64,000 nucleotides of DNA from Oricola cellulosilytica (GTDB lineage: Bacteria; Pseudomonadota; Alphaproteobacteria; Rhizobiales; Rhizobiaceae). This document shows, piece by piece, positions 7,501-12,002 of the stretch. Under the pieces are notes generated by a model. That model searched no databases, had not been told where the DNA came from, and saw nothing but the letters and a program-made list of their open reading frames with translations. A program made the position numbers and the translations under genes. The DNA lies in the NCBI RefSeq assembly GCF_019966575.1, contig NZ_JAINFK010000002.1, positions 186,001-250,000 on the forward strand, written 5' to 3'. Position 1 is the first letter of the stretch. Every line of letters begins with the position of its first letter.

Positions 7501-8127
7501 TTACGCGGCAAAGGCGTTCTTTGCGGAAGCGGTCTCCTTGTCCGCAATCCGGCGGATCGCTTCATTTGCCTTGGCAAGGCTTTCGTCCTCGCTGTTCACC
7601 AGTCCGTCGGCTGCTACGATTTCGACATCGTCAATGCCGATGAAGTTCAGCACTTGGCGCAGATGCGGCGTGGCAAAATCGACCACGCTGTCGACCGGGA
7701 CCCCGCCGGACGTGACGACGATATAAGCCTTCTTGCCCGACAGGAGACCTTCCGGCCCGGCGTCGGTGTAACGAAACGTCTCTCCCGCACGGCATACGAG
7801 ATCGATCCAGGCCTTGAGCGATCCGGGGATCGAGAAATTGTAGATCGGCGCGCCGACCACCAGGATGTCCGCTTCCTTGAGCTCGGTGACAAGCTGCTCG
7901 GAAAGGGCGAGCGCCTTGGCCTGCTCGACTGTCCGGTCCGCCTTCGGGGTCCAGTTCGCCGAGAGCCAGTGCTCGTCGATGAGTGGAAGCGCGGCGGTCG
8001 CCTCCCGCTCGGTGATTTCCGCGTCGCCATAGACGGCGCGAAGGGTGTCCACGAGGTCGGCGCTGAGACGGCGGCTGAACGAACCTGCGGCTCGCGCGGA
8101 AGCCTGAACGGACAGAATCTTGGTCAT
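7501..8127 (-). CDS. azoR: FMN-dependent NADH-azoreductase
   Basis: A 208-residue flavodoxin-fold reductase of the AzoR family, which uses FMN and NAD(P)H to reduce azo compounds and quinones. The N-terminal KILSVQASARAAGSFSRRLS gives the phosphate-binding loop. GAPIYNFSIPGSLKAWIDLV is the flavin-contacting segment typical of AzoR, and TSGGV corresponds to the second FMN loop. The start at 8127 (MTKILSVQ) has GGAG about 9 bases upstream (ccGGAGaattcca); an in-frame ATG at 8238 would add residues without family similarity. It is transcribed alone, converging on the microprotein gene. A role in quinone or thiol stress is inferred from the family. Confidence 0.9.
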   Translation of the reverse strand: MTKILSVQASARAAGSFSRRLSADLVDTLRAVYGDAEITEREATAALPLIDEHWLSANWTPKADRTVEQAKALALSEQLVTELKEADILVVGAPIYNFSIPGSLKAWIDLVCRAGETFRYTDAGPEGLLSGKKAYIVVTSGGVPVDSVVDFATPHLRQVLNFIGIDDVEIVAADGLVNSEDESLAKANEAIRRIADKETASAKNAFAA

Positions 8128-8246
8128 TGGAATTCTCCGGTTGATAATCGGCACCGGAGATAAGCCCTCAACAGCCTCGCGCCAGACCCGCTGCGGATAC
8201 GCACCGTTCGACGCGGGCGAACAGTTAGGCAGGCACAAGAAGATCG

Positions 8247-9170
8247 CTATGCCGCATGAAGTTCACCGTCATCGCCGGTGTCCGCGCGGATGCCAATCAG
8301 GCGGCACATTGCGAAAACCAGATCCGGACGGTTCATTGTGTAAAAATGGAAATCGGTTACGCCACGCTCCACAAGATCGAAAACCTGTTCTGCCGCCACG
8401 GCGGAGGCGACCAATGCGTGCGTTTGCGGATCGTCGTCCAGTCCCTCAAAGCGCTCTGCCAGCCATGCCGGAATTTCCGCCCCGCACCGTGAGGCGAAAT
8501 TGCGGACGGCTTTGAAACTATGGATCGGGATGATCCCCGGCACGACCGGAACGTCGATCGCGGCGCCACGAACGCGCTCGAGATACCGTTCGTAGGTGTC
8601 GTTGTCGAAGAAGAACTGGGTTATCGCGCGCGCGGCGCCCGCGTCGACCTTGCGCTTGAGCATGTCGATGTCAGTGGCGAAGTCCGGACTTTCAGGATGT
8701 TTTTCCGGATAGGCTGCGACCGATATGTCGAGCGCGCCCATTGCGGACAGACCTTCGACGAGATGGGCAGCGTTGCGGTACCCTCCGGGATGCGGCCGGT
8801 AAGCAGCCCCTACCCCGTCGGCGGGATCCCCGCGGAGCGCTACAAAGCGGGTGATGCCTAGTGACATGAAATCCGCAGCAACCGCGTCGACATCCTCACG
8901 TGTCGCATCGACGCATGTTAGGTGTGCGGCAGCGGGGGTGGCGTCCGTCCCGATTACCTTCTGCAGCGTCTTCCGGGTCGGCTCGCGTGTCGAACCGCCC
9001 GCCCCATAGGTCACCGACACGAAGTCCGGTTTCAGCGGAGCGAGCTTTTCGATCGCTTCCGAAAGCGTCTCCTCCATGCGGGGCGTTTTCGGCGGGAAGA
9101 ACTCGAAGGAGACCCTGATGCCGGTATCGTCCTTCGTGGCATCGTTGACGGACTTGAAGGCCGATCTCAT
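8247..9170 (-). CDS. metF: 5,10-methylenetetrahydrofolate reductase
   Basis: A 307-residue MTHFR that makes 5-methyl-THF, the methyl donor for methionine synthase, in the cytoplasm with FAD and NADH. Features are VSFEFFPPKTPRMEE near the start (the catalytic Glu in FEFFPPK), TYGAGGSTREPT, ALRGDPADGVG, and PGIIPIHSFKAVRNFASRCGAEIP. The ATG at 9170 overlaps the last 4 bases of the upstream ArsR-methyltransferase gene (ATGA), so translation is coupled and the regulator almost certainly controls its own partner. Length is normal for bacterial MetF. No methionine synthase gene is in the window. Confidence 0.95.
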   Translation of the reverse strand: MRSAFKSVNDATKDDTGIRVSFEFFPPKTPRMEETLSEAIEKLAPLKPDFVSVTYGAGGSTREPTRKTLQKVIGTDATPAAAHLTCVDATREDVDAVAADFMSLGITRFVALRGDPADGVGAAYRPHPGGYRNAAHLVEGLSAMGALDISVAAYPEKHPESPDFATDIDMLKRKVDAGAARAITQFFFDNDTYERYLERVRGAAIDVPVVPGIIPIHSFKAVRNFASRCGAEIPAWLAERFEGLDDDPQTHALVASAVAAEQVFDLVERGVTDFHFYTMNRPDLVFAMCRLIGIRADTGDDGELHAA

Positions 9171-10186
9171 GCGACAAACTCCAGGGGCGATGCCTTGTTC
9201 AAATCATCATCCGCGATTTCGACACGGGGGTCGCGGGCCATCCATATCTTGACCGTAAGCCGGCCGCCGTCCGCCTTGCCCGCATCGAGCGCTTTGGAAG
9301 CGATCATTTCAAGTTCTGCATCCGCGAACCATCCGCCAATGTCCTCATCCGAAAATCCGAGACGACGGTGCGCATGCTCGTCACGAAGAAAATCGAATCC
9401 GTGCGGAGCGAAATCCACGATGACCAGCCGGCCACCCGGACGTAGCGCCCTCGCCGCCTGGCTGATCGCTTCCGCCGGATCGTCGAGATAATGCAGCACC
9501 TGATGGACGGTCACCAAGTCAAAACCATCGCGCGGAACCGGAAGGTTATAGACATCGCCCAGCCGCACTTCCGCTGAGCGGATGCCTGCATGATCGAGAT
9601 TGGCGCGCGCCACATGCAGCATCTCACGGTTTGAGTCGATGCCTATGCCGTGCTGATAGATATTCGAGAAGACCTCGAGCAGGCGCCCGGTCCCGGTACC
9701 CAGATCGAGCATGTAGCGAACCGGCTCATCTCCCACCAGGGCGACAAGAGCATCCTCGACCTTCCTGTCCGCGACATGCAGAGTGCGGATCTCGTCCCAG
9801 CTGGACGCATTCTTGGAGAAATAGTCGGACGCCTTCTCGCGGCGTTTCGCCTTGACGCGCGCAAGCCGTTCCAGGTCGTGCCGGATTGTCGGATCCTTCT
9901 GGTCGAGACGTTCTAGTAACTCCTGCGTCAGCAGGTCCCCGGTGAGATTCCGGCTCAGCCGGAAAAGCGCCCACGATCCTTCCTGTTGCCGTTTGATAAG
10001 CTTTGCGTCGAGCATCAGCTTCAGGTGACGCGAAACGCGTGGCTGCGACTGGCCCAGAATCTCCGTCAGTTCGGAAACCGTCAGATCGCCGTCCGCCAAG
10101 AGGTTGAGAATGCGCAAGCGGGTCGACTCGGCTATCGTTTTCAGAACATCGACAATAGTGTCGAGAGTGTAATCGCTGTCGCTCAT
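9167..10186 (-). CDS. ArsR-family regulator fused to a class I SAM methyltransferase
   Basis: A 339-residue two-domain protein. Residues about 8-95 form an ArsR winged helix (LKTIAESTRLRILNLLADG, then LTVSELTEILGQSQPRVSRHL as recognition helix). Residues about 150-300 form a Rossmann methyltransferase (YMLDLGTGTGRLLEVF motif I, then LVTVHQVLHYLDDP and GGRLVIVDFAPHG). The ArsR metal-site cysteines are absent, so metal sensing is unlikely. The fusion lies directly upstream of metF with a 4-base overlap. ArsR-type SahR regulators are known to control the SAM cycle in Proteobacteria. Here the methyltransferase fold could sense SAM/SAH rather than, or as well as, catalyse. A perfect palindrome lies 19 bases upstream of the start. 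Sensing of SAM/SAH is inference. Confidence 0.85.
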   Translation of the reverse strand: MSDSDYTLDTIVDVLKTIAESTRLRILNLLADGDLTVSELTEILGQSQPRVSRHLKLMLDAKLIKRQQEGSWALFRLSRNLTGDLLTQELLERLDQKDPTIRHDLERLARVKAKRREKASDYFSKNASSWDEIRTLHVADRKVEDALVALVGDEPVRYMLDLGTGTGRLLEVFSNIYQHGIGIDSNREMLHVARANLDHAGIRSAEVRLGDVYNLPVPRDGFDLVTVHQVLHYLDDPAEAISQAARALRPGGRLVIVDFAPHGFDFLRDEHAHRRLGFSDEDIGGWFADAELEMIASKALDAGKADGGRLTVKIWMARDPRVEIADDDLNKASPLEFVA

Positions 10187-10204
10187 GAATGGACCCTAAA
10201 AGAC

Positions 10205-10220
10205 ATAAAGATATCTTTAT
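10205..10220. promoter_or_regulatory. Perfect 16-bp palindromic operator in the arsR-metF promoter
   Basis: ATAAAGATATCTTTAT is a perfect inverted repeat placed 19-34 bases before the ArsR-fusion start. On the minus strand it overlaps the likely -10 region: GTTGCA (10243-10238) then a 17-base spacer to ATAAAG (10220-10215). Position over the core promoter fits autorepression by the ArsR-type product. It also lies upstream of the divergent DUF2293 gene. Binding is inferred. Confidence 0.65.
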
Positions 10221-10270
10221 ATGAAGAAAATTTTGCTTGCAACCTCCGTTCGAGAGCGGGTGTTCCCGCG

Positions 10271-10612
10271 ATGACCACGAAGCGGCAAGTCGAGGCGGCA
10301 AAGTCATTGCGCGCGCTGGCGCCGATGATTCCCTTCAATGAGGCCTTGGAGGTCAAGGCCCTTGCTGCCGGGAGGCACTTGCGCCGTCTGCCCGTCTCCG
10401 TGGCGATGTGGCTGTCGCTTGTGGCCCATATTCGCCACGTGCACACCGACTACGACTCGCTTCTGGAGGAAGGGTATGACCGCGATGCGGCACGCCATTT
10501 CGTGGTTGACGATATCAACTCGGTCTTGGCGCGATGGCAGGCCACACGCCGTGTTGAGATTGACGATTCCGAAGCCATGGGCGCCTTCCCCGACCCGGTC
10601 GAGGACTCATAG
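10271..10612 (+). CDS. DUF2293 domain-containing protein
   Basis: A 113-residue cytoplasmic protein matching the DUF2293 pattern as I remember it: RALAPMIPFNEAL, then LPVSVAMWLSLVAHIRHVHTDYD, then EEGYDRDAARHFVVDDINSVLARW. No signal peptide or membrane segment is present. The ATG at 10271 is chosen because family similarity begins immediately; the frame stays open upstream into the divergent regulator. It shares an 84-base promoter region with the arsR-metF operon, so the palindrome there might also influence it. No function is established for this family. Confidence 0.75.
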   Translation: MTTKRQVEAAKSLRALAPMIPFNEALEVKALAAGRHLRRLPVSVAMWLSLVAHIRHVHTDYDSLLEEGYDRDAARHFVVDDINSVLARWQATRRVEIDDSEAMGAFPDPVEDS

Positions 10613-10814: not shown

Positions 10815-12002
10815 ATGACTTTCCGCAGCCGTGCCCTTGAGGCAGCCAGCGCACTCGTGATCATATTCGCGTCAGGCACCGCCGCCCGTGCTGAGATAAA
10901 CGCTCAAGCCGTCTTTGACGCACTTGCCAAACAGGCAAGTGCGCAAGGTCTCGAACTGACGGCAAATTCCGTCGCCCTCGACGGTTCGGACGATATCGTC
11001 GTCTCCGGCCTGAAAGTGGGCGTTCCTGGCGAAGATGATGGGCTCGAGATCGAGAACATCCTGCTGGAGGACGTCAGCGAGGCTGATAATGGTGCATATG
11101 TGATAGGCAGGATCGCCGCTCCCTCATTCACCGATACGCAGAACGGAATGACCATCGATTTCGAGGGCGGCAGTATCGAAGGCTTCTACGTGGCCGGTCC
11201 GAACGAGACCGATCCGATTGCAGGCGTTGGCATCTATCGGGCGCTTAATGTCGGCGCGCTGCAGGTTAGCCAGAGCGGCAAACCATTTTTTTTGCTGGAC
11301 GGGATTACGGCGGAAATAAGCCCTTACGAACCCGGCACAACGCTGGAATTCGACGCCGAGATAAAGGATTTCACAATCGATTTCGCGAACATGCCGGACG
11401 CGAGAACGCGCAAGACGATGGCCGATGTCGGATACGAGCAGATTCGCGGGCGCATGAACGCGGAAGGCTCCTGGGACACGGCAAGCGGCAAGCTCCAAAC
11501 GTCGCAGAGCTTTACGCTGGACGATGCCGCCATTCTCAACTTCGATTTCGCCATTGGAGGCTACACCGCCGAACTGCTTGCAGCCCTTCAGAAAATGCAG
11601 GCACAAATGCAAGATCAGGGGGACCAGGCCATGGGCTTGGCGATGATGGGCCTGATGCAGCAGCTTGAAATCGCGAACATCGAAATCGAGATCGTTGACG
11701 AATCCGCGACCGGGCGGATTCTCGATTACGTGGCCAAGCAACAGGGCACCAATCGCGAAAGCCTCGTCGCCCAAGCGAAGGGCATCCTGCCGTTCGCGCT
11801 TGCGCAGTTGCAGAACCCAGCCTTCGCAGCCAAGGTCACCGCAGCCGTCGGCGCCTATCTGGACAATCCTCAGTCTCTGAAGATCGTCTCCGCGCCCGCC
11901 AGTCCCGTCCCGGTAGCGCAGATCATGGCCGCAGCGATGAGCGCGCCGCAGTCGATCGTTGACGTTCTCGCCGTCGAGGTCTCCGCGAACGCAGGAAACT
12001 AG
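10815..12002 (+). CDS. Unrecognised secreted (periplasmic) protein
   Basis: A 395-residue protein with a clear signal peptide (hydrophobic ALVIIFASGTA, cleavage after ARA near residue 26). The mature part alternates beta-type stretches about gradients of small residues (SVALDGSDDIVVSGLKV, LEIENILLEDV, IDFEGGSIEGFYVAG). It then has a helical, Gln/Met-rich stretch around residues 255-280 (LAALQKMQAQMQDQGDQAMG) and an alanine-rich C-terminus. There are no cysteines and no catalytic motif that I recognise. The repeated strands recall beta-taco/AsmA-type periplasmic proteins, but this is only an impression. It is transcribed alone, with a strong terminator at 12021. Function is unknown. Confidence 0.75.
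   Translation: MTFRSRALEAASALVIIFASGTAARAEINAQAVFDALAKQASAQGLELTANSVALDGSDDIVVSGLKVGVPGEDDGLEIENILLEDVSEADNGAYVIGRIAAPSFTDTQNGMTIDFEGGSIEGFYVAGPNETDPIAGVGIYRALNVGALQVSQSGKPFFLLDGITAEISPYEPGTTLEFDAEIKDFTIDFANMPDARTRKTMADVGYEQIRGRMNAEGSWDTASGKLQTSQSFTLDDAAILNFDFAIGGYTAELLAALQKMQAQMQDQGDQAMGLAMMGLMQQLEIANIEIEIVDESATGRILDYVAKQQGTNRESLVAQAKGILPFALAQLQNPAFAAKVTAAVGAYLDNPQSLKIVSAPASPVPVAQIMAAAMSAPQSIVDVLAVEVSANAGN

What the first reader, a model, noticed from the sequence alone, without database searches (positions are those of the whole stretch)
10187..10270. Perfect palindrome over the promoter of a fused ArsR-methyltransferase and metF
ATAAAGATATCTTTAT (10205-10220) is a perfect inverted repeat at the likely -10 of the operon whose first gene is an ArsR winged helix joined to a SAM-binding fold. 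The next gene, metF, feeds the methyl cycle. The regulator lacks the ArsR metal cysteines. The layout suggests a repressor that reads SAM or SAH in its own methyltransferase domain. SahR-type regulators of the SAM cycle are known; whether this fused form is a sensor, an enzyme, or both is not settled by sequence.
Basis: partly seen in the sequence, partly recalled or inferred. Interest (0 to 1): 0.6.

Follow-up and report, generated by a model that had tools for sequence, protein, structure and literature searches.

The report
SahR repressor and its operator
The palindrome is the binding site of SahR, an already described bacterial repressor that uses a methyltransferase-like domain to sense S-adenosylhomocysteine and switch on its own gene, metF and the rest of the methionine/SAM cycle, so this is a textbook member of a known system rather than a discovery.

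Summary
Observation confirmed: a perfect 16-bp palindrome (10205-10220), 18 bp upstream of an ArsR-HTH + SAM-methyltransferase-fold gene (10186-9167, minus strand) that overlaps metF by 4 bp. A bare 16-bp palindrome is not rare (3 in the window, about 1.5 expected), but the sequence is specific: the four best matches to the degenerate 20-mer in the 3.7-Mb genome lie directly upstream of sahR-metF, ahcY and two parts of a split B12 methionine synthase; the reversed-pattern control has none. In relatives, 63 of 69 sites examined precede sahR, ahcY, metH parts, metK, metF or metE. The regulator occurs across the order and in about half of sampled Alphaproteobacteria, followed by metF in 42/43 and 29/29 loci. 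This is SahR, the SAH-responsive ArsR-family repressor (Leyn et al. 2014); the fused form IS SahR, not a variant. A Brevundimonas protein of the same architecture and operon ('ArsRM', 2023) binds its own promoter in vitro and is claimed to methylate arsenite; our protein has no cysteine, so that activity is unlikely here. SAH as effector is inferred from Desulfovibrio. Already known; low interest. Small extras: SahR boxes on unlinked pieces of split MetH, and the unrecognised SahR/ArsRM match.

The parts
10203..10222 (.). SahR operator, 20 bp (ACATAAAGATATCTTTATAT); perfect 16-bp core 10205-10220
   Evidence: same motif upstream of sahR in 30/30 nearest loci (own included) with at most 2 mismatches
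9167..10186 (-). sahR: ArsR-type winged helix + class I SAM methyltransferase-like domain, 339 aa, no cysteine
8247..9170 (-). metF, 5,10-methylenetetrahydrofolate reductase, overlapping the sahR 3' end by 4 bp
   Evidence: TIGR00676 above cut-off; PF02219; metF follows sahR in 42/43 and 29/29 relatives
7501..8238 (-). Flavodoxin-like FMN-dependent NADH-azoreductase gene after metF; possible operon member (conservation there not tested)
   Evidence: PF02525
10271..10612 (+). Divergent DUF2293 gene sharing the intergenic region with sahR; found beside sahR in 30 of 80 sahR loci, essentially the closest relatives only

Best explanation
The locus is the sahR-metF operon with its autoregulatory SahR operator. 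SahR, an ArsR-family homodimer (dimerisation inferred), binds the 20-bp palindrome, blocks the promoter just upstream of the start codon, and thereby represses itself, metF and, at three other sites in this genome, ahcY, the homocysteine-methyltransferase part and the pterin-binding part of a split B12-dependent methionine synthase. When S-adenosylhomocysteine accumulates it binds the methyltransferase-like domain, SahR leaves the DNA, and the enzymes that clear SAH and re-methylate homocysteine are made. Shown here: architecture, operator sequence and its genome-wide specificity, conservation of operator, targets and operon, conserved SAM/SAH-binding motif. Inferred from published SahR work: repression and SAH as the ligand.
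For: In the own genome the four sites with at most 1 mismatch to ATATAAANANATNTTTATAT are upstream of sahR, ahcY, the metH pterin part and the metH homocysteine part, and the reversed control pattern has 0 hits. In relatives, of 69 sites examined, 20 precede ahcY, 26 a metH part, 11 sahR, 3 metK, 2 metF, 1 metE; 6 have no such gene. Operator in front of sahR in 30/30 of the nearest loci, 17/20 order-level loci (at most 2 mismatches) and 25 of 27 readable class-level loci. Homologues in 150/151 relatives at a loose threshold, mostly full-length, and 94/190 Alphaproteobacteria at E<=1e-40. DNA-recognition helix QSQPRVSRHLK almost invariant and SAM/SAH motif D161-x-GTGT, D184, D211 conserved. Literature: SahR regulon core = sahR, ahcY, metH, metH2, metF, metK; 20-bp palindrome; alpha- and deltaproteobacteria. 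Ensifer aridi sahR has the box upstream of sahR, ahcY, metH, bhmT, metK, and sahR expression rises in the deletion strain. The Brevundimonas protein heading an arsRM-metF-HMT-metH operon shifts its own promoter.
Against: No ligand binding, repression or DNA binding was measured for this protein. No metK operator was found in this genome (best site 5 mismatches to the 16-mer), although metK is a core target elsewhere. The primary SahR paper (Novichkov et al. 2014) was not held, so the statement that its sensor domain is methylase-like rests on my memory of its abstract; the architecture itself is shown here. No sequence of a named, experimentally tested SahR could be aligned directly.
Confidence: 0.92

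Rival explanations
1. Bifunctional ArsRM: the protein is also an arsenite methyltransferase, as proposed for the Brevundimonas sp. M20 protein in the same operon context.
For: Same fusion, same operon start (arsRM-metF-HMT-metH), reported arsenite tolerance in E. coli and EMSA with its own promoter. SAM-binding motif intact here.
Against: The proposed As(III) ligand is a cysteine (C134); this protein has none and 35 of 55 orthologues have none, with no cysteine column shared by more than 7 of 55. ArsM-type enzymes use conserved cysteines (established knowledge). Targets are SAM-cycle genes, not ars genes.
Confidence: 0.03
2. Bifunctional regulator-enzyme: SahR-type repressor whose methyltransferase domain still methylates some unknown substrate.
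For: Beyond the SAM motif, residues H228-Q-V-L-H232, D258-F-A-P-H262, L267-R268, H273 and L276-G-F278 are invariant or nearly so, as one might expect of a substrate pocket; the fold is a complete class I methyltransferase (Z 20-23 to enzymes).
Against: Ligand sensing and domain coupling explain the same conservation; no substrate or linked pathway gene other than the SAM cycle.
Confidence: 0.12
3. SamR-like regulator that senses SAM instead of SAH.
For: A distant SahR relative, SamR, was predicted to sense SAM in Xanthomonadales; sequence cannot separate the two ligands.
Against: SamR has a 24-bp motif, is only about 30% identical to SahR, and controls metB, metE, metX2, hom; here the 20-bp SahR motif and ahcY, the SAH-clearing gene, are present.
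Confidence: 0.06
4. The palindrome is a chance inverted repeat.
For: Three perfect 16-bp palindromes occur in the window, 1.5 expected.
Against: Sequence-specific conservation at the same place in dozens of genomes and at the other SAM-cycle genes.
Confidence: 0.01

Closest known systems
SahR (ArsR family, Desulfovibrio alaskensis and alphaproteobacterial SahR; Novichkov et al. 2014, Leyn et al. 2014)
   Same: ArsR-type HTH regulator; 20-bp palindromic operator; autoregulation; targets ahcY, metH parts, metF; gene beside metF
   Different: Nothing that is known to matter; in this genome no metK operator was found and methionine synthase is split, so two boxes serve separate MetH pieces
ArsRM of Brevundimonas sp. 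M20 (PMC10190100)
   Same: ArsR-methyltransferase fusion, first gene of a metF operon, binds a TTTATAT-containing palindrome upstream of itself
   Different: Claimed arsenite methyltransferase with a cysteine ligand; this protein has no cysteine. The paper does not mention SahR, though its protein has the SahR architecture and operon context
SamR of Xanthomonadales
   Same: SahR homologue controlling methionine genes
   Different: 24-bp motif, about 30% identity to SahR, wider regulon, effector unknown
Split three-gene methionine synthase of Phaeobacter inhibens (PMC5764234)
   Same: Separate PF02574, PF00809 and B12-binding (PF02607+PF02310) proteins, as in this genome
   Different: That paper concerns the enzyme; here two of the pieces carry SahR operators

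Membership tests
SahR | ArsR-family winged-helix DNA-binding domain | tested here: met
   PF01022 residues 21-65; NF033788 above cut-off
SahR | C-terminal effector domain related to SAM-dependent methylases (feature recalled from the 2014 abstract) | tested here: met
   PF08241 residues 160-256; predicted fold matches class I methyltransferases
SahR | 20-bp palindromic operator upstream of its own gene | tested here: met
   10203-10222; conserved in relatives
SahR | Regulon core ahcY, metH, metF, metK | tested here: met
   ahcY, two metH parts and metF in this genome; metK site in some relatives only, none convincing here
SahR | SAH binding releases the repressor from DNA | not testable with these tools
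   Only the conserved nucleotide-binding motif can be seen
SahR | Sequence orthology to an experimentally tested SahR | tested here: inconclusive
   One close orthologue per genome across the class with conserved metF linkage, but no named tested SahR was available to align
Metal-sensing ArsR/SmtB | Cysteine metal-binding site in or near the HTH domain | tested here: not met
   No cysteine in the protein
ArsRM / ArsM arsenite methyltransferase | Cysteine As(III) ligand(s) | tested here: not met
   No cysteine; no conserved cysteine column in 55 orthologues
SamR | 24-bp ATC-N10-GAT-type motif with metB/metX2/hom targets | tested here: not met
   20-bp SahR motif at SAM-cycle genes instead

The most novel reading that the evidence does not exclude
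The methyltransferase domain of SahR is still a working enzyme, so that the repressor senses SAM-cycle state by turning over a substrate rather than only by binding SAH.
Probability: 0.1. Interest if true: 0.5.

Novelty: already known. Interest (0 to 1): 0.12.

Why it matters
It places a window from an uncharacterised Oricola-like genome in a known regulatory circuit, and gives an operator map of the SAM cycle there. The one loose end of wider use: the 2023 'ArsRM' arsenite methyltransferase of Brevundimonas has the architecture and operon context of SahR, and its proposed arsenic-binding cysteine is not a conserved feature of the family, so that claim deserves a re-check against SahR function.

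Tried and rejected
The SahR primary paper is not held. A chance palindrome was considered and rejected on conservation. A riboswitch or other RNA element: no Rfam match in the window at gathering thresholds. A metal-sensing ArsR was rejected (no cysteine). ArsM-type activity was considered and thought unlikely. No solved structure of a SahR was found by sequence (best matches are single-domain methyltransferases and ArsR/CzrA-type repressors); the fold search is dominated by methyltransferases, and Rv2258c-SAH and RdmB/DnrK-type enzymes match along most of the chain but with rmsd 16-20 A, i.e. similar domain order without a common arrangement. The six relative-genome sites without a SAM-cycle gene have one mismatch, are mostly poor palindromes and lie in less G+C-rich contigs; treated as chance. 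One early script read minus-strand loci in the wrong orientation and was replaced; two loci with short flanks (L153, L163) could not be read properly and are left out of the count.

Full report
What is there. The 16-mer ATAAAGATATCTTTAT is at 10205-10220 as described. Extended to 20 bp it is ACATAAAGATATCTTTATAT (10203-10222), one mismatch from the degenerate motif ATATAAANANATNTTTATAT. It lies between two divergent genes: on the minus strand a 339-aa regulator (start 10186), on the plus strand a DUF2293 gene (start 10271). The regulator has an ArsR-type helix-turn-helix (PF01022, 21-65) and a class I SAM methyltransferase domain (PF08241, 160-256). metF overlaps its end by 4 bp (TIGR00676 over cut-off).

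Is it more than chance? As a palindrome, no: three perfect 16-bp inverted repeats occur in the 64 kb and about 1.5 are expected. As a sequence, yes: no other match with up to 3 mismatches occurs in the window (0.02 expected), and in the whole 3.7-Mb genome the only further matches with up to 2 mismatches are two sites. One is next to ahcY (C4:804865-806220) and the other lies just upstream of the start codon of the pterin-binding part of methionine synthase (C7). With the degenerate 20-mer, the four sites with at most one mismatch are these three plus one 32 bp upstream of the homocysteine S-methyltransferase part of methionine synthase (C6). The reversed-pattern control has none.

Methionine synthase is split here. 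The metH family model matches three separate genes, which carry S-methyl_trans, Pterin_bind, and B12-binding domains. This is the arrangement shown to form a three-part methionine synthase in Phaeobacter inhibens. SahR boxes sit on two of the three parts. No convincing box was found at metK (five mismatches to the 16-mer) or near the B12-binding part.

Relatives. The regulator is present at full length in nearly all members of the family and order sampled and in 94 of 190 Alphaproteobacteria at E<=1e-40, nearly always as one copy. metF directly follows in 42 of 43 loci long enough to tell and in 29 of 29 class-level loci. The operator stands before sahR in 30/30 of the nearest loci and 17/20 order-level loci with at most 2 mismatches, and in 25 of 27 readable class-level loci. 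A pattern search in 61 genomes found sites in 49; of 69 sites examined with their neighbours, 63 precede ahcY (20), a metH part (26), sahR (11), metK (3), metF (2) or metE (1).

The protein. Over 26 sequences spanning the class the residues Q46-S-Q-P-R50-x-S52-R-H-L-K56 of the recognition helix are invariant, which fits an operator that has hardly changed. In the methyltransferase domain, D161-x-G-T-G-T166 (motif I), D184, H228-Q-V-L-H232, D258, H262, L267-R268, H273 and L276-G-F278 are invariant. The predicted structure is confident (mean pLDDT 86, pTM 0.80). Its C-terminal part matches class I methyltransferases at Z 20-23 (best row: Z 22.8, rmsd 1.8 over 180 residues). So the SAM/SAH pocket is kept; whether there is catalysis cannot be read from sequence. 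There is no cysteine in the protein, and no cysteine column is shared by more than 7 of 55 orthologues.

Comparison with what is known. Leyn et al. [quoted passage not shown] the SAH response was shown in Desulfovibrio alaskensis. I recall from the abstract of that primary paper (Novichkov et al. 2014, not held) that the sensor domain of SahR is related to SAM-dependent methylases; that is exactly the fusion seen here. [quoted passage not shown] In Brucella microti ahcY, metH, metF and sahR respond together to acid. The Brevundimonas 'ArsRM' (PMC10190100) is the same architecture heading arsRM-metF-HMT-metH; it shifts its own promoter in vitro and is said to methylate arsenite through a cysteine. 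The paper does not mention SahR. Its DNA binding supports the mechanism proposed here; its enzymatic claim does not carry over to a cysteine-free protein.

Mechanism and certainty. Shown: site, architecture, target set, conservation. Inferred: dimeric binding, repression by covering the promoter close to the start codon, and relief by SAH. I put 0.92 on this being SahR acting as an autoregulated repressor of the SAM cycle; SAH as ligand is the least tested step. The organism is probably an Oricola or a close neighbour (nearest named loci are Oricola, 76-78% identity in SahR).

Noticed in passing
G000 C7:9760-9779 and C6:215592-215611 (L003, L014): Methionine synthase is split into three separate genes, and two of them (pterin-binding and homocysteine parts) carry their own SahR operators.
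   Followed up: partly
L003 61-1460: Upstream of the pterin-binding MetH part lie a second MTHFR-fold gene and a DUF5981 (MTHFR C-terminal, cysteine-rich) gene, a second MetF-like system besides the metF in the window.
   Followed up: no
outside the window: PMC10190100 (Brevundimonas ArsRM): A published bifunctional arsenite methyltransferase has the architecture and operon context of SahR, and the paper does not mention SahR; its proposed As ligand cysteine is not a conserved feature of the family.
   Followed up: partly
10271-10612: A DUF2293 gene of unknown function is divergent from sahR and shares its intergenic region; the pairing is seen in 30 of 80 sahR loci, all among the closest relatives.
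   Followed up: partly
10815-12002: A 395-aa protein with an apparent signal sequence and no Pfam match.
   Followed up: no
L086 about 1500-2020: A SahR-type site upstream of metE in one order-level relative, consistent with metE as an occasional SahR target.
   Followed up: partly
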